DNA of 48,217 bases, taken from contig NZ_RCBY01000034.1 of NCBI RefSeq assembly GCF_003838195.1, positions 1-48,217 on the forward strand, written 5' to 3'. The notes under the pieces were generated by a model, which searched no databases, was not told where the DNA came from, and saw nothing but the letters and a program-made list of their open reading frames with translations. The stretch's first letter is position 1; every line of letters starts with the position of its first letter. The position numbers and the translations under genes were made by a program. Below, piece by piece: positions 12,415-19,210 of this stretch. Origin of the DNA: Okeania hirsuta (GTDB taxonomy: Bacteria > Cyanobacteriota > Cyanobacteriia > Cyanobacteriales > Microcoleaceae).

Positions 12415-14559
12415 ATGGATACTTTAATAAGAATAGGAAGTCGAGGGTATCAAGTTATTCAGCTTCAAGAACAATTAAATAACTGGGGATTTCCAGTCGG
12501 GAAAGTAGATGGAATATTTGGCCCTAAGACTCTTGCTGCAGTTATTCGTTTTCAGGAATATCATAATTTAAAGCCAGATGGTATTGTTGGTCCAGAAACA
12601 AATAAAATTTTGTTAACACCTCCTAATGTTCAAGCTTTAATTAACGTCATAATAGATACTGGTACGAGTAGTGATATTCGTAGTAGTGTAATTTACGCAT
12701 TAGGAGACATAAAATCAAAAGAGGCGGTTCAACCTTTAATTAACATTATCACAACTGATAGAGATAGTGATGTTCGTAGTAGGGCAATTGACGCATTAGG
12801 AGACATAAAATCAAAAGAGGCGGTTCAACCTTTAATTAACATCATCACAACTGATAGAGATAGTGATGTTCGTAGTAGTGCAATTGAAGTATTAGGAAGG
12901 ATAGAATCAAAAGAGGCGGTTCAACCTTTAATTAACATCATCACAACTGATAGAGATAGTTTTTTTCGTTTTATAGCAATTGAAGCATTAGGAAGGATAA
13001 AATCAAAAGAGGCAGTTCAACCTTTAATTAACATCATCAAAGATACTGATACGGATAGTTCTGTTCTTATATTGGCAATTTACGCACTAGGAAACATAGA
13101 ATCAAAAGAGGCTATTCAAGCTTTAATTAACGTTGTTCAACCTTTAATTAATATTATCACAAATACTGGTGAACATATTCATGTTCGTAAGAGTGCAATT
13201 GAAGTGTTAGGAAACATAGAATCAAAAGAAGCTGTTCAAGCTTTAATTAATATTATCACAAATACTGGTGAACATATTCATGTTCGTAGTAGTGCAATTG
13301 TAGTATTAGGAAGGATAGAATCAAAAGAGGCGGTTCAACCTTTAATTAACATCATTGATACTGATACTAATAGCGATATTCGTAGTATTGCAATTGACGC
13401 ATTAGGAAACATACAGTCAAAAGAGGCGGTTCCACCTTTAATTAATATCATTACAAATACTGGTGAGGATATTGATGTTCTTTGTAGTGCAATTGAAGTA
13501 TTAGGAAACATACAATCAAAAGAGGCGGTTCCACCTTTAATTAATATCATTACAAATACTGGTGAGGATATTGATGTTCTTTGTAGTGCAATTGAAGTAT
13601 TAGGAAACATACAATCAAAAGAGGCGGTTCCACCTTTAATTAATATCATTACAAATACTGGTGAGGATATTGATGTTCGTAAGAATGCAATTGAAGTATT
13701 AGGAAACATAGAATCAAAAGAGGCGGTTCCACCTTTAATTAACATCATCACAGATACTGATACTGATGTTCGTAGTAGTGCAATTAGAGCATTAGGAAAC
13801 ATACAGTCAAAAGAGGCGGTTCCACCTTTAATTAAAATTGTCACAGATACTGATACTGATGTTCGTAGTAGTGCAATTAGAGCATTAGGAAACATACAGT
13901 CAAAAGAGGCGGTTCCACCTTTAATTAAAATTGTCACAGATACTGATACTGATGTTTTTGTTCGTAGTAGTGCAATTGACGCATTAGGAAACATACAGTC
14001 AAAAGAGGCGGTTCCACCTTTAATTAAAATTGTCACAGATACTGATACTGATGTTTTTGTTCGTAGTAGTGCAATTGACGCATTAGGAAACATACAGTCA
14101 AAAGAGGCGGTTCCACCTTTAATTAAAATTGTCACAGATACTGATACTGATGTTTTTGTTCGTAGTAGTGCAATTGACGCATTAGGAAACATACAGTCAA
14201 AAGAGGCGGTTCCACCTTTAATTAAAATTGTCACAGATACTGATACTGATGTTCGTAGTAGTGCAATTAGAGCATTAGGAAACATACAGTCAAAAGAGGC
14301 GGTTCCACCTTTAATTAACATCATTACAGATACTGATACTAATAGTTCTCTTCTAGAGATAGCAATTAGAGCATTAGGAAACATACAATCAAAAGAGGCT
14401 ATTGAATCTTTAATTAACATCATCACAGATACTAATACGGATAGATATGTTCGTAGGATTGCAATTGAGGCATTACTAGGAATAGAGCCTGAGCAGTATC
14501 AGGGTTATTCCATTACACATTGGACAAATCTATTGAGCAATAGGATCAGAAATAGGTAA
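12415..14559 (+). CDS. Peptidoglycan-binding domain fused to a long HEAT-repeat array
   Basis: A 714-residue protein. Residues 4-70 form a PG_binding_1 domain (SRGYQVIQLQEQLNNWGF, VDGIFGPKTLAAVIRFQEYHNL, DGIVGPETN). From about 72 to 690 there are about 19 HEAT repeats (PBS-lyase-like) of 31-33 residues with consensus NIQSKEAVPPLIxIVTDTDTDVRSSAIxALG. There is no visible signal peptide, so how the PG domain would meet the wall is unclear. HEAT arrays are protein-binding solenoids, so a scaffold role is likely (inference). Several central repeats are identical at DNA level, so copy number probably varies by slippage. An inverted M7 element begins 3 bp after the stop. Confidence 0.88.
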   Translation: MDTLIRIGSRGYQVIQLQEQLNNWGFPVGKVDGIFGPKTLAAVIRFQEYHNLKPDGIVGPETNKILLTPPNVQALINVIIDTGTSSDIRSSVIYALGDIKSKEAVQPLINIITTDRDSDVRSRAIDALGDIKSKEAVQPLINIITTDRDSDVRSSAIEVLGRIESKEAVQPLINIITTDRDSFFRFIAIEALGRIKSKEAVQPLINIIKDTDTDSSVLILAIYALGNIESKEAIQALINVVQPLINIITNTGEHIHVRKSAIEVLGNIESKEAVQALINIITNTGEHIHVRSSAIVVLGRIESKEAVQPLINIIDTDTNSDIRSIAIDALGNIQSKEAVPPLINIITNTGEDIDVLCSAIEVLGNIQSKEAVPPLINIITNTGEDIDVLCSAIEVLGNIQSKEAVPPLINIITNTGEDIDVRKNAIEVLGNIESKEAVPPLINIITDTDTDVRSSAIRALGNIQSKEAVPPLIKIVTDTDTDVRSSAIRALGNIQSKEAVPPLIKIVTDTDTDVFVRSSAIDALGNIQSKEAVPPLIKIVTDTDTDVFVRSSAIDALGNIQSKEAVPPLIKIVTDTDTDVFVRSSAIDALGNIQSKEAVPPLIKIVTDTDTDVRSSAIRALGNIQSKEAVPPLINIITDTDTNSSLLEIAIRALGNIQSKEAIESLINIITDTNTDRYVRRIAIEALLGIEPEQYQGYSITHWTNLLSNRIRNR
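13797..14283 (+). repeat. Intragenic 93/99-bp tandem repeats of the HEAT array
   Basis: The phrase ACATACAGTCAAAAGAGGCG recurs at about 13799, 13892, 13991, 14090, 14189 and 14282, with spacings of 93, 99, 99, 99 and 93 bp. The 99-bp units at 13991 and 14090 look identical base for base. The 6-bp difference adds VF after the TDTDTD loop. A second set of 99-bp near-identical repeats lies at about 13420-13720. Confidence 0.9.
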
Positions 14560-14735: not shown

Positions 14736-14846
14736 GCTTTTTACTATAATTATAGTCACCTCTATTACTGTGTTTCTGGCTTTTCCAGACACAGATAATG
14801 CCAAGTCCAATGAATTGTACTAGCACTTTTTATTGGTATTAATATA
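14736..14846 (+). pseudogene. Degenerate duplicate of part of the downstream membrane-pentapeptide gene
   Basis: This 111-bp stretch matches 15227-15349 inside the next gene over most of its length (for example CTTTTTACTATAATT, CACCTCTATT and TTTATTGGTATTAATAT versus TTGTATTGGTATTAATAT). A short deletion and a stop break the frame. It reads LFTIIIVTSITVFLAFPDTDNA against LFTIIVLTSIAMFMALPGTDDA. It is best explained as the trace of a deleted paralogue or of a partial tandem duplication. Confidence 0.7.
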
Positions 14847-14861
14847 CTGTATTTCCAAAAA

Positions 14862-16715
14862 ATGTTTAAAGATTTCCCACAGCAAAACTTGCAAGGTGGT
14901 ACTGTCAAAAGTCAAGATAATGCTAATTTTAGCCATAGCAAGATTCAGGGACGAAACTTTTCTCAAGCTATGCTTGTTAGTGGAAATTTTCGTTATGCCC
15001 AAGCTGGGCTAAAAATAAGTTGGTTGCTGATTTTAGGAACAATTTTATTATTTTTAGCAATGCTAGGTGGATTTATCTGTGGCTATGCAGGAGCTTTTAT
15101 AGGTAGTATATTGAAATGGAAAGGTCTAACTTGGATAGGACCATTATTAGTCCTTGGTTTTGGATTAATTTTATTCTTGGGTTTTATTTTAATCACAATT
15201 TATAGAGGTATAGGTACGGCTTTATGGCTTTTTACTATAATTGTACTCACCTCTATTGCTATGTTTATGGCTCTTCCAGGCACAGATGATGCCGGAGCTG
15301 ATGCCAGAGCAGACGCAATTTTACTAGCATTTTGTATTGGTATTAATATTTCAGGGGTATTGTTAGAGGCAATTGCGATCGCAGTGATGAGAATTTCATT
15401 CCCAAACAGAATGTTATTATTATTGATTCAATTTGTAACTCTAGCTACAGCAATACTGGGAATAATAGCAGCGACTCAGGAAGAGAATAAAAATTTGCTC
15501 TACACTTCATCTGTTGTCAAAATTTTGGCCATTGCAATTCCTGCCACGATAACTTTGCTCGCTCTAAGTCTTTTTATTGGTTGCCGTGCTGTGGTTGGCG
15601 ATCGCAAATACGCTTTGATTAGAAATATTGCAATTATTCTATGTAGCTATGGAGGAACTAGCTTTTACGAAGCAAATTTAACTGATGCCAACTTCTCTGG
15701 TGCCAGTCTCAAAAACACTAATTTGAGAAAAGCTATTCTCACTCGCACTTGTTGGTTAAATGCTAAACACCTAGACAAAGCTAGAGTTGAAGGAACCTAC
15801 TTAGAAAATAAAATAATTCGTCAATTGGTTGTAACAGGTAACGGACGAGATCAGAACTTTGACAATTTAGACTTACGGGGATGTAACTTACGATACGCTG
15901 ACTTAACTGATGCTAGTTTCATTGGTACAAAGTTGAGCGAAGCTACTTTAGAAGGGGCAAACTTAACAAGAGCAAAACTTGTGAAAGCTCAACTGTACGG
16001 TACTAACCTAACAAATGCAATACTAACAGGTGCTTGTATTCAGGATTGGGCAATTTCCCTGGATACCCAATTTGAGGGGATTAAATGCGATTATGTTTAT
16101 ATGCGCTTAGAAACAAAAGAAGACCGCGACCCTTGGCGCAAACCAGACAACCGCAATGAGATTTTTAAAGATGGAGACTTTAGCAGTTTTATCGCCCCTA
16201 TTATCAAAACTAAACAACTTTATCAAACTCAAAATGTAGACCCACGGGAAGTAGCAGAAAATTATTCAATTTTAGATATATTTCACCATGAAGGAGTAGA
16301 CCCCAGTGCCGCAGCAATAGCTTTTCAAAGATTAATCGAAAAATATCCAGAATCAGGATTACAAGTTCTTTCAATTGAAGGGCGAGGTAATGAAATAGTT
16401 CACTTTCAAGCACAAGTTACTGATGATGTTGACCGCTCATTTCTCAGTCAAGAATATAATGAAATTTATCATCAAATAAAATCAGGAAGTTATCCAGATT
16501 TATTAGCACTTTTAGCTGGAGTAGCGGAAAAAGACAAACATATTATTGAGCTGAGAAATTTATTAGAAACAGCCTTAAAGCAGAACAAATTTTATGTCGA
16601 AACCTATCAAGAAACCCGGAATATTGAAGTCCAGAAAGGTGATTATCGAGAGACTTCTGTTAACGATCGAGGGAGTTATGTTGAAGGGGATACTCATCAT
16701 AACTCCCCAGAGTAG
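14862..16715 (+). CDS. Polytopic membrane pentapeptide-repeat protein with C-terminal GDYRET motif
   Basis: A 617-residue protein. A short N-terminal repeat-like region (1-45) is followed by about six or seven membrane segments (about 52-245). Then come pentapeptide repeats (about 268-395: ANLTDANFSGASLKNTNL, DLRGCNLRYADLTDASF), a soluble region with coiled-coil character (about 425-583), and a terminal motif at 584-617, RNIEVQKGDYRETSVND followed by RGSYVEGD. The same motif (about 22 of 31 positions identical) occurs in the CHAT protease encoded convergently 52 bp away. Shared short C-terminal motifs in membrane and protease partners are how several bacterial death or immunity pairs find each other (inference here). 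Many related pentapeptide proteins continue past this motif with a helical domain that this one lacks, so it may be truncated. Confidence 0.82.
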   Translation: MFKDFPQQNLQGGTVKSQDNANFSHSKIQGRNFSQAMLVSGNFRYAQAGLKISWLLILGTILLFLAMLGGFICGYAGAFIGSILKWKGLTWIGPLLVLGFGLILFLGFILITIYRGIGTALWLFTIIVLTSIAMFMALPGTDDAGADARADAILLAFCIGINISGVLLEAIAIAVMRISFPNRMLLLLIQFVTLATAILGIIAATQEENKNLLYTSSVVKILAIAIPATITLLALSLFIGCRAVVGDRKYALIRNIAIILCSYGGTSFYEANLTDANFSGASLKNTNLRKAILTRTCWLNAKHLDKARVEGTYLENKIIRQLVVTGNGRDQNFDNLDLRGCNLRYADLTDASFIGTKLSEATLEGANLTRAKLVKAQLYGTNLTNAILTGACIQDWAISLDTQFEGIKCDYVYMRLETKEDRDPWRKPDNRNEIFKDGDFSSFIAPIIKTKQLYQTQNVDPREVAENYSILDIFHHEGVDPSAAAIAFQRLIEKYPESGLQVLSIEGRGNEIVHFQAQVTDDVDRSFLSQEYNEIYHQIKSGSYPDLLALLAGVAEKDKHIIELRNLLETALKQNKFYVETYQETRNIEVQKGDYRETSVNDRGSYVEGDTHHNSPE

Positions 16716-16767
16716 GAATGGGAAATAAACTAGCAACCTTTGTGTGAGAATTTGTTTTTTATTTGCC

Positions 16768-17796
16768 TTAATTTTTGGTATTTTTCCACTCTTCCAAAGC
16801 ACCAATCACAAAACTTGCTGCCGGATGATTTAAAGTTTGCTCAAAAACACTCATACCACCAGCTTTTAAAGCACTAAAAACCCGATTCATCAAAGCAGGA
16901 TTAGTTTCAATTTTCTCAATTACTTCCCCTGCTATTTTCATATTTCCAGTCATTGTATCAGTAGGGTTATTTTTGCTTAGTTGTTCCAGCAATTGTTGAA
17001 TTTCATTAGCAGCATCAGCCAGGTTTTGTTTTTCTGCGGAATTATTATAGTAATCTCCTTCAACATAACTTCCTTGGTCATTAATAGTTGTCTCACGATA
17101 ATCACCAGTTCCAATTTGTATATTACGTTCACCAGTCATTGTTTTATCTCCTTGATTAGAAGTATTAAAATCAAATTTATTACGAGGTATAAAAGTCGCA
17201 GTTTTAGGAATTGAATTTTCGCTATTTTTAGCAGACAACTGAGGAATTAACTCTTGAGGTATTCCTGCAATCATAATAGCATTACATCCTAACTGATAAG
17301 CAAAATCATAAGTTTGTCCAGCTCCCAAAGCATCATAAAAAGCCACAGCAAATTCAATTGCAGCTCTATCATTTATAGCCTGACTCATACCAATCACATA
17401 ATTAATATATTTAACTATTTCTTGAGCTTGATACTCTGAATAACAAGCATTCAGAACAACACATTCTACCTGTTCCGAAAATAATTGAAAAAGTCCGGCA
17501 ATAGCTTCAGTATCAACTAATTTTTGAGACCCAGTTTCATCCTCAAAAACTAAACCATCATGGCCTGCTCCATGTCCGCTAAAATGAACAATATTCGGTT
17601 GATAATCTAAAATAGCTCTACGAATATCTCTATATCGAGTAGCTTCCGCAGATTCAATTAAAAATAAATCTCTAGAAGGCGATCGCCTCAATCCTTCTTT
17701 TATTTCTCGCATTTCTTCATCTAACCTTAAATAACTTGTACTTTTAGGATTAGCTGATAAAATTAATATTTTCCGATAAGTAGCATGATTATTCAT
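16768..17796 (-). CDS. CHAT-domain (caspase-like) protease with C-terminal signalling motif and helical domain
   Basis: A 342-residue protein. Residues 8-185 form a CHAT domain: the start KILILSANPKSTSYLRLDEE is typical of cyanobacterial CHAT proteins, the catalytic His is H75 (HFSGHG) and the catalytic Cys is C118 (VVLNACYS). After a linker, residues 223-250 carry RNIQIGTGDYRETTIND then QGSYVEGD, shared with the neighbouring membrane pentapeptide protein. Residues 256-338 form an alpha-helical domain (NLADAANEIQQLLEQL, ALKAGGMSVFEQTLNHPAASF) seen in many cyanobacterial proteins of conflict or signalling type. CHAT proteases such as TPR-CHAT act in CRISPR-linked and other death pathways; here the trigger is unknown. 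An IS605-type element ends 15 bp upstream of the start, so the native promoter may be displaced. Confidence 0.85.
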   Translation of the reverse strand: MNNHATYRKILILSANPKSTSYLRLDEEMREIKEGLRRSPSRDLFLIESAEATRYRDIRRAILDYQPNIVHFSGHGAGHDGLVFEDETGSQKLVDTEAIAGLFQLFSEQVECVVLNACYSEYQAQEIVKYINYVIGMSQAINDRAAIEFAVAFYDALGAGQTYDFAYQLGCNAIMIAGIPQELIPQLSAKNSENSIPKTATFIPRNKFDFNTSNQGDKTMTGERNIQIGTGDYRETTINDQGSYVEGDYYNNSAEKQNLADAANEIQQLLEQLSKNNPTDTMTGNMKIAGEVIEKIETNPALMNRVFSALKAGGMSVFEQTLNHPAASFVIGALEEWKNTKN

Positions 17797-17811
17797 AAAC
17801 TAATACCTCGT

Positions 17812-17854
17812 GAAGTTCTCTCCCGTTAAATCAAAGATTATAACCGGAGCTTCT
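17812..17854. mobile_element. IS605-type right end with subterminal hairpin
   Basis: GAAG..CTTC encloses CCCGTTAAATC..GATTATAACCGG, an imperfect hairpin. The stop codon of tnpB lies inside it. The same core (GTTAAATC..GATTATAAC) forms the hairpin at the other end (19157-19210), as expected for IS200/IS605 ends recognised by a Y1 transposase. Any guide (omega) RNA would span the 3' part of tnpB and this end on the minus strand. Confidence 0.65.
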
Positions 17855-19094
17855 CAACAAACAAAGAAGTTTCTTGTTTTGCTGGCTGACCAATATCTAA
17901 GCCTCCACAAGCAGACAAGATGATACCCACCTCGTTTAACGCTTTATTTAATATGTTTTTTGCTGCATTTTCATCCCTATCTAAAACTGTTCCACATTTC
18001 TGACAAGAATGAGTTCTAACTGATAAAGTCTTAGGTACTTTTTGACCACAATTACTGCAATTTTGTGATGTATTGTGAGGATTAACTTTTACTACATGAA
18101 CACCGCGTTTTACCGCTACTGCATTCAATTTTTCAATAAAATTACCCCAGGCTACATCATAAATTGATTTTGATAGTTTCGTGTTTTTTGCCAGACCTCT
18201 AATATTTAAGTTTTCAACTGCAATCATATCATATTGTTTAACTAATTTATGAGCAGTCTTATAGTGAAAATCTTCTCTTTGCCTAGCAATATGTTGATGT
18301 AATCTAGCTATTTTGTTTTGTGCCTTTTTCCAGTTGTTTGAACCTATTTCTTTTCTAGATACTTTTTTTTGCTTTCTTGCTAAATTCGATTGAGATTTTC
18401 TATAGAATTTAGGTACAGAAACAGTCTCACCAGTATTAGTAGTTAAAAACTCTTTTAACCCTACATCAATACCTACAGCAGTTTTGATATTATTTGTAGG
18501 AATTAGATTAGGAACTTATTTATCTTCTAAACTGAAACTTATATAATAACCATCAGCTTTTTTGGTTATAGTTGCAGTTTTTATCGTCATACCATCTGGT
18601 ATAGGTCTATGAACTATGACTGGAATAGTACCAAACCTACTAATAATGATTTGCTTACCATCAAACTTAATTGCTGCTTTAGAATGATTGACTCTGCTGA
18701 AACAAAATGACCTTAACTTTCCTGATTTTTTAAATCTAGGTCGCCCTCCACGTTGACCTTTTTTGTCAGGTATTAACCAACGTTTCCAAGCTTTATCTAG
18801 CCTTTGTAAGTTAATTTGTTGAATTTCTGAATATATTTCCTTGTAGTCAGGAAATAACTGTTTTGTCTGTTTAAGTGCTGATTGTTGAAAATAATAATCT
18901 GGTCTAGTAGAAATTTCACCAATAGGACATGAAATTAATGAACAACGGTCAACTTGACATCTAGTTCTATTTAACCAATCTAGTCTTTGACCTAGAGCAT
19001 AATTCCAATGTCTTCGTAACAGTTCTAGCCAATAATCTATTTTGACTGACTGTTCAGTAGTGGGCTTAATTTTGTAGCAATGAGTAATTATCAT
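17838..19094 (-). pseudogene. tnpB: TnpB (IS200/IS605 family RNA-guided nuclease) interrupted by one stop codon
   Basis: One frame of 419 codons broken only by TAA at 18516-18518. The N-terminal half (192 residues, MIITHCYKIKPTTEQ, helix-turn-helix region, WKRWLIPDKKGQRGGRPRFK) ends ISFSLEDK. The frame resumes VPNLIPTNNIKTAVGIDVGLKEF with the first RuvC Asp, then AVENLNIRGL (RuvC Glu), a CSNCG..CQKCG zinc ribbon and LDRDENAAKNIL (third acidic residue). All catalytic residues are intact, so the lesion is a single nonsense codon just before the nuclease core. No TnpA is present, so this is a non-autonomous IS1341-type element. A split protein made by re-initiation at an internal start (for example 18227) would lack the first catalytic Asp. 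Confidence 0.88.
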
Positions 19095-19156
19095 AATTTT
19101 ATACTACTCTTTAGTGCTACATTTGAACAGCAATCGAAACCTGTTTAATTTGCAGC

Positions 19157-19210
19157 TCGGCAATTCCCCTCCTGTTAAATCGCAGATTATAACGGGAGAC
19201 CCCTTGCCGA
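19157..19210. mobile_element. IS605-type left end with large hairpin
   Basis: TCGGCAA at 19157 pairs with TTGCCGA at 19204-19210. Inside, CCCCTCC pairs partly with GGAGACCCC, and GTTAAATC with GATTATAAC. This is the tnpB upstream end, so the element spans about 17812-19210. Confidence 0.65.

What the first reader, a model, noticed from the sequence alone, without database searches (positions are those of the whole stretch)
16611..17130. CHAT protease and membrane pentapeptide protein, encoded convergently, share a C-terminal GDYRET/YVEGD motif
Residues 584-617 of the polytopic pentapeptide protein and 223-250 of the CHAT protein align at about 22 of 31 positions (RNI.., GDYRET, ND.GSYVEGD), although the rest of the two proteins is unrelated. 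A short, repetitive Gly/Tyr/Asp motif shared by a death-type protease and a membrane protein is how bacterial amyloid-signalling (BASS-type) or effector-associated-domain pairs are built. The membrane protein may be the executor, or the sensor that recruits the protease. I do not know this motif as one of the described classes.
Basis: partly seen in the sequence, partly recalled or inferred. Interest (0 to 1): 0.78.

Follow-up and report, generated by a model that had tools for sequence, protein, structure and literature searches.

The report
Matching tail motif pairs protease, membrane protein
A caspase-like protease and a membrane protein encoded end to end in a filamentous cyanobacterium carry the same short motif, and such neighbour-specific matching tags recur across cyanobacterial genomes, which suggests a tag-coded assembly system that may switch on immunity or cell-death proteins.

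Summary
PP (14862-16715, +) and CHAT (16768-17796, -) share a motif with 18 of 28 identical residues; the rest of the two proteins is unrelated. It is not a general linker: the motif class is rare (9 of 386 phylum genomes) and clustered (50 of 98 matches in 388 order-level genomes lie within 3 kb of another, 0.2 expected; 30 of 71 outside the genomes that gave the profile). In CHAT a four-helix module follows (AlphaFold2), found in 53 of 386 genomes. For 46 of 98 module proteins the stretch before the module matches an ORF of its own locus (rank p<=0.05; 4.9 expected); control segments gave 4 of 56 and 4 of 96. Partners include NLR-type ATPases, DUF6232 and other membrane proteins. One PP body carries different tail motifs in different loci. 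Best reading: pair-specific motifs co-assemble two proteins, here bringing a CHAT protease to a six-helix membrane protein. It works like BASS amyloid signalling, but lacks an NLR and adds a module. Amyloid formation and cell killing are untested.

The parts
14862..16715 (+). PP: 617-aa membrane pentapeptide-repeat protein; homologue of module-bearing PP proteins, several of which lie next to NLRs
   Evidence: Pfam Pentapeptide E 1.1e-26; 38% identity over 600 aligned positions to L131; alignment A4
15024..15578 (+). Six predicted transmembrane helices (PP residues 55-239)
   Evidence: Kyte-Doolittle windows; this part differs strongly between related PP proteins
15654..16046 (+). Pentapeptide-repeat region (about residues 265-395; limits set by eye)
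16617..16700 (+). Shared motif, PP copy (residues 586-613), 4 residues from the C-terminus
   Evidence: profile E 3.4e-14, one of two matches found in the genome
16768..17796 (-). CHAT: 342-aa protein = CHAT protease domain + variable linker + motif + four-helix module
17257..17775 (-). CHAT protease domain (residues about 8-180), candidate dyad His75/Cys118
   Evidence: Pfam PF12770 E 1.1e-9; PADLOC chat E 2.3e-23; PDB 8tl0 E 8.9e-14; H75 and C118 invariant in 7 of 7
17044..17127 (-). Shared motif, CHAT copy (residues 224-251)
   Evidence: 23/28 identical in L037, where the preceding linker is 5/37
16774..17031 (-). Four-helix module (residues 256-341); also ends ~130-aa proteins made of little more than motif and module, and many PP proteins
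   Evidence: profile in 53 of 386 genomes, 3 copies in own genome; AlphaFold2 pLDDT 88-96 per 10-residue block over model residues 51-130
12415..14559 (+). Candidate third component upstream of PP on the same strand: peptidoglycan-binding domain plus HEAT repeats (membership inferred from neighbourhood only)
   Evidence: PG-binding gene in the same place in L035 and L037, HEAT gene (cut by the end of the locus) in L250, a different gene in L253

Best explanation
The motif is a pair-specific co-assembly tag. Shown: two otherwise unrelated proteins encoded side by side share it; it stays conserved while the linker in front of it decays; the same pairing, with many different motif sequences, holds for about half of the module proteins examined in cyanobacteria; and partners are often an NLR or protease on one side and a membrane protein or small adaptor-like protein on the other. 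Inferred: when the system is triggered, the Gly/Tyr-rich motifs of several PP and CHAT molecules stack into a joint beta assembly (amyloid-like, or a short beta-solenoid). This gathers CHAT protease domains at the membrane protein and activates them by proximity. CHAT then cleaves PP or other proteins, PP (or its cleaved form) breaches or stalls the membrane, and the cell dies or goes dormant. The four-helix module behind the CHAT motif would hold the motif silent or give a second oligomerisation contact. The gene upstream of PP (peptidoglycan-binding, HEAT repeats) is a candidate sensor.
For: Motif similarity far beyond shuffles. Present in five convergent CHAT/PP loci: window, L035, L036, L037, L253. 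Selection on the motif: window versus L037 CHAT, linker 5/37, motif 23/28, module 65/86. Own-locus matching 46 of 98 (4.9 expected), non-redundant 31 of 72; controls 4 of 56 and 4 of 96. Motif class clustering 50 of 98 versus 0.2 expected; 30 of 71 outside the 11 genomes that supplied the profile. Within the class, own partners match better than swapped ones (18 hand-picked pairs, permutation p 5e-5). Same PP body with different tail motifs. Okeania SIO3B5 (L036): three motif units in both partners, units inside a gene more alike (19-24 of 30 nt) than between genes (14-17 of 30), which suggests separate amplification to the same number. Six membrane helices in PP. The same genome holds a second pair with a different motif (L134).
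Against: No amyloid test. The window motifs are charged (40% and 28% DEKR) and have lower AGGRESCAN means than the eight other peptides compared, except one published non-aggregating control (scale recalled). AlphaFold2 gives the motif no structure (pLDDT under 50), which is uninformative. 52 of 98 module proteins do not pass the own-locus test and 48 of 98 class matches have no second match within 3 kb. In L249 the CHAT gene next to a PP with this motif class carries no detected motif. In L250 no CHAT domain was detected beside the motif-module protein, so the protease may be dispensable. In L253 CHAT has an extra partial motif copy that PP lacks. In L036 the PP body is lost. No sensor is shown. 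Phylogeny is not controlled.
Confidence: 0.58

Rival explanations
1. Stoichiometric docking tag: the two motifs form a specific, non-polymeric beta pairing (strand exchange or solenoid capping) that keeps protease and membrane protein in one resting complex. No amyloid, no templating.
For: The motif is charged and rich in turn-forming residues rather than strongly aggregation-prone; units of about 10 residues can be repeated, which suits a solenoid; pair specificity fits docking as well as templating; on the module side the motif is internal, not terminal.
Against: In the nine NLR partners above Pfam cut-off the motif lies near the N-terminus, and in DUF6232 partners at the C-terminal end, as described for amyloid-signalling pairs; both proteins carry the same rather than complementary sequences.
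Confidence: 0.27
2. Protease-substrate (or protease-inhibitor) pair: the PP tail is a substrate-docking or pseudosubstrate copy that holds CHAT inactive or marks PP for cleavage, as caspase-like proteases do with adjacent effectors.
For: CHAT is a caspase-like protease next to a membrane protein with a tail copy of a CHAT segment. Some NACHT partners also carry a Peptidase_S26 domain (L062, L063).
Against: Many motif pairs show no recognised protease on either side, for example motif-module protein with DUF6232, or PP with NACHT; no CHAT domain was detected in L250 although motif and PP are kept.
Confidence: 0.09
3. The similarity is a by-product of recombination or gene conversion between convergent genes, without function.
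For: The two copies form an imperfect inverted repeat; PP genes in this family do recombine.
Against: DNA identity of the copies is 56/78 in the window and 52/78 in L037 while protein identity is kept; unrelated gene types in tandem show the same pairing.
Confidence: 0.02
4. The motif is a common low-complexity linker of cyanobacterial proteins.
For: 48 of 98 class matches have no second match within 3 kb.
Against: Rare class (9 of 386 genomes); strong clustering; control segments do not pair.
Confidence: 0.02

Closest known systems
BASS, bacterial amyloid signalling sequences (Dyrka et al. 2020, not read; known here through passages of PMC7889193, PMC8086366 and PMC12261475)
   Same: Short motif of 20-40 residues shared by proteins of adjacent genes, in filamentous bacteria including cyanobacteria; NLR-side motif N-terminal and partner motif C-terminal in many related loci; BASS with CHAT is mentioned in PMC7889193.
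   Different: No NLR in the window pair; partner is a six-helix pentapeptide membrane protein, no BELL domain identified; the CHAT motif is internal, followed by a four-helix module; amyloid not shown; motif class could not be compared with BASS1-10.
Effector-associated domains (EADs; PMC8195603, passages and section 9)
   Same: Logic of homotypic adaptors that join variable effectors to STAND ATPases, closest relatives within one locus.
   Different: The shared element is a ~28-residue motif, not a globular domain; the helical module is in one partner only.
CHAT proteases of SAVED-CHAT and related defence systems (PADLOC models; PDB 8tl0, a CHAT domain-containing protein)
   Same: CHAT domain with conserved His and Cys.
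   Different: No SAVED or TPR domain found by Pfam in this protein; short protease with motif and module.
Fungal HET-S/NLR and mammalian RHIM signalosomes (background knowledge and PMC7889193 passages)
   Same: Neighbouring fungal genes code an NLR and a membrane executor joined by a short motif.
   Different: Sequence relation was not tested; no ATPase in this pair.

Membership tests
BASS amyloid signalling pair | Short motif shared by proteins of adjacent genes | tested here: met
BASS amyloid signalling pair | One partner is an NLR with the motif at its N-terminus | tested here: not met
   No ATPase domain found in either window protein, and the genome scan found these two motif matches only; met in related loci such as L123, L062, L077
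BASS amyloid signalling pair | Partner with BELL domain and C-terminal motif | tested here: inconclusive
   PP motif is C-terminal; no BELL profile was at hand
BASS amyloid signalling pair | Motif forms amyloid and cross-seeds | not testable with these tools
   Only a crude scale was run
BASS amyloid signalling pair | Sequence belongs to one of the ten BASS classes | not tested
   Defining paper not held; supplements could not be read
Effector-associated domain (EAD) | Same globular helical domain in both partners | tested here: not met
   Module in CHAT but not PP: three module matches in the genome at E<=0.1, none in PP
CHAT protease | CHAT domain above Pfam cut-off | tested here: met
   38.6 bits, cut-off 24
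CHAT protease | Catalytic His and Cys | tested here: met
   H75 and C118 invariant in 7 of 7 aligned; catalytic roles assigned from general knowledge
CHAT protease | Proteolytic activity | not testable with these tools
   needs an experiment
Death-fold domain (for the four-helix module) | Structural match to a death-fold structure | tested here: inconclusive

The most novel reading that the evidence does not exclude
Cyanobacteria use an addressable signalling code: many mutually distinct short beta motifs, each shared by the proteins of one locus, plug interchangeable parts (NLR ATPases, CHAT proteases, pentapeptide and DUF6232 membrane proteins, small four-helix adaptors) into separate death or immunity assemblies, several per cell, without requiring an NLR. 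The window pair is an NLR-free protease/membrane version, and the four-helix module is a new adaptor domain.
Probability: 0.45. Interest if true: 0.85.

Novelty: new variant of a known kind. Interest (0 to 1): 0.7.

Why it matters
It would extend amyloid-type or motif-coded signalling beyond NLR/BELL pairs to protease/membrane-protein pairs, add a widespread four-helix module for which Pfam, NCBIfam and PADLOC gave no model when a stand-alone copy was scanned, and give a tractable set of naturally distinct motif pairs for testing how signalling specificity is kept between parallel pathways in one cell. The membrane pentapeptide protein would become a candidate executor class.

Full report
What is there. 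The window holds two convergent genes, PP (14862-16715, +, 617 aa) and CHAT (16768-17796, -, 342 aa). PP has six predicted membrane helices at residues 55-239, pentapeptide repeats (Pfam E 1.1e-26), a conserved domain at about 405-560 and a tail motif. CHAT has a CHAT protease domain (Pfam E 1.1e-9; PADLOC chat E 2.3e-23; PDB 8tl0 E 8.9e-14), a linker, the motif and a C-terminal module. The motifs align without gaps at 18 of 28 residues; the local alignment scores 126 against at most 55 in 300 shuffles, and cutting the motif off brings the score to background.

The motif is under selection. Among seven CHAT proteins the linker between protease and motif changes fast (5 of 37 identical between window and L037) while the motif (23 of 28) and the module (65 of 86) are kept. 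In the more distant L077 and L076 the motif has changed (9 of 28) and the adjacent protein carries the changed form; in L077 that protein is nSTAND1 plus WD40. His75 and Cys118 are invariant in all seven. At the DNA level the two copies in one locus are 56 of 78, 58 of 78, 52 of 78 and 82 of 138 identical in the window, L035, L037 and L036, so recent gene conversion does not explain the likeness.

The pairing rule. In front of the module lies a variable stretch, often Gly/Asn/Tyr-rich, with many unrelated forms. I took up to 60 residues before the module from 98 proteins and asked in which of 104 loci the best match among non-module ORFs lies. In 46 of 98 the own locus ranks in the top 5% (4.9 expected), in 23 of 98 it is the best of all. 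By my count of that list, 32 of 78 pass in loci fetched through the module alone (L114-L193) and 14 of 20 in loci fetched earlier through CHAT. Among 72 non-redundant stretches 31 pass (binomial tail 1.4e-21). Taking p<=0.06 and dropping five doubtful loci by eye leaves 46 pairs, 37 with the genes within 350 bp. Controls with the same procedure: 60 residues further upstream, 4 of 56; 60 residues inside the module, 4 of 96. Of the 72 non-redundant stretches 33 beat the best of 20 shuffles. The other 52 of 98 do not pass; some loci end at contig edges.

Who the partners are. Of the 46 pairs (45 distinct partner ORFs) 30 partner ORFs were scanned with Pfam. Nine have a NACHT, NB-ARC or nSTAND1 domain above cut-off and two a NACHT below it, one is CHAT plus AAA_35 (L132), six are DUF6232 above cut-off and one below, one is a pentapeptide protein, one has only TPRs, and nine have no Pfam hit; of those nine, L115, L122, L134 and L178 have strongly predicted membrane helices and L075 a marginal one. 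In the nine NLR-type partners the motif is near the N-terminus (residues 1-74), in the two sub-threshold ones near the C-terminus; in the seven DUF6232 partners it is at the C-terminal end. Two NACHT partners also carry Peptidase_S26 (L062, L063).

The window's own motif class. Fifty of the 98 lie within 3 kb of another match; random placement in 7.5 Mb would give about 0.2. Leaving out the 11 genomes that supplied profile rows, 30 of 71 matches in 33 genomes cluster, in 11 genomes. The other 48 of 98 are isolated at this threshold; in some the partner motif falls below it (L063, L076, L077). In this genome only the two window copies were found. For 18 hand-picked pairs, own partners resemble each other more than swapped ones (0.618 versus 0.416, p 5e-5; inside the GDYRET subclass of 7 pairs p 0.0035); relatedness of the organisms is not controlled.

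PP is a module of the wider system. PP aligns along most of its length with PP proteins that end in motif plus module (38% identity over 600 aligned positions to L131). L123, L129 and L118 lie next to NACHT proteins with the same motif. Tail motifs can differ wholly from the window's (1 of 26 identical in L131, L133, L118, L129, L068) although the bodies are alike. So the same kind of membrane protein carries different motifs, and for several the neighbour carries the matching one. In L250 a 127-aa motif-module protein, with no CHAT domain detected in the 9 kb fetched, faces a PP protein with the same motif class; in L251 a motif-module protein is followed by a PP body cut by the contig end, so its tail is unknown. 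In L249 a PP-motif-module protein is followed by a CHAT protein without a detected motif, a result against a strict rule. In L237 six ORFs within 8.4 kb carry the class.

Concerted change. In Okeania SIO3B5 (L036) both partners have three 10-residue copies of the motif unit instead of one. Units inside one gene share 19-24 of 30 nucleotides, units of different genes 14-17, so amplification seems to have happened in each gene. In L253 CHAT has an extra partial copy and PP does not, so equal copy number is not a rule. In L036 the PP body itself is lost and only the tail frame is open.

Site and history. The nearest named records are Okeania species (L035 94%, L036 87% CHAT identity), so the window is probably from an Okeania-like filamentous cyanobacterium (inference). 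The pair lies between an HAD gene and a GHL10 gene (HAD named by eye). L264 has this order; L265 has HAD followed by the pair and lacks the GHL10 gene, which is on another contig (L266); at the same site in L263, of the same genus, tblastn found HAD and GHL10 but no CHAT or PP. The pair is therefore accessory. Upstream of PP and on its strand lies a PG_binding_1 plus HEAT gene; L035 and L037 have PG-binding genes there, L250 a HEAT gene, L253 something else. I propose this as candidate sensor; it is unproved.

Mechanism and comparison. Shown: neighbour-specific shared motifs, selection on them, modular exchange. Inferred: homotypic beta assembly, recruitment and proximity activation of CHAT, membrane effect of PP, cell death or dormancy. 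It works like the BASS pairs described in the passages I saw (PMC7889193; PMC8086366; PMC12261475), where CHAT is mentioned as an occasional carrier. I do not file it as BASS, because the window pair has no NLR and amyloid is unshown, and I could not compare motif classes. I do not file the module as an EAD (PMC8195603, passages and section 9), because only one partner has it. Passages of PMC10907252 were seen and gave context only. Hence: new variant of a known kind, interest 0.7.

Noticed in passing
window 14862-16715 versus L250, L035: PP is a mosaic: residues 51-250 (membrane part) are 66-88% identical per 50-residue block to L250 but 20-36% to L035, while residues 451-600 are closer to L035 (86-96%) than to L250 (60-80%). 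Exchange of the membrane part suggests allelic diversification.
   Followed up: partly
window 14736-14845: Likely remnant of a second PP membrane region upstream of PP: 67 nt at 88% and 33 nt at 91% identity to parts of 15227-15349.
   Followed up: no
window 12415-14559: PG_binding_1 domain followed by many near-identical HEAT repeats, apparently recently expanded.
   Followed up: partly
window 17807-19198: IS605-type TnpB-like gene split into two ORFs (17838-18227, 18516-19094) between 43-nt near-repeats (17807-17849, 19156-19198); no tblastn match of it between HAD and CHAT in L265.
   Followed up: partly
L134 (own genome, contig C41): A second motif pair in the same genome with an unrelated motif: a 130-aa motif-module protein and a 664-aa protein with four predicted membrane helices and no Pfam hit.
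   Followed up: partly
L071, L073, L116, L144, L149, L180: DUF6232 proteins with predicted membrane helices end in the motif of an adjacent motif-module protein (L071 was not among those checked for helices): a possible function for DUF6232 as membrane effector.
   Followed up: partly
L237 1-8417: Six ORFs in 8.4 kb share the motif class, including two P-loop proteins with 7 and 6 predicted membrane helices.
   Followed up: no
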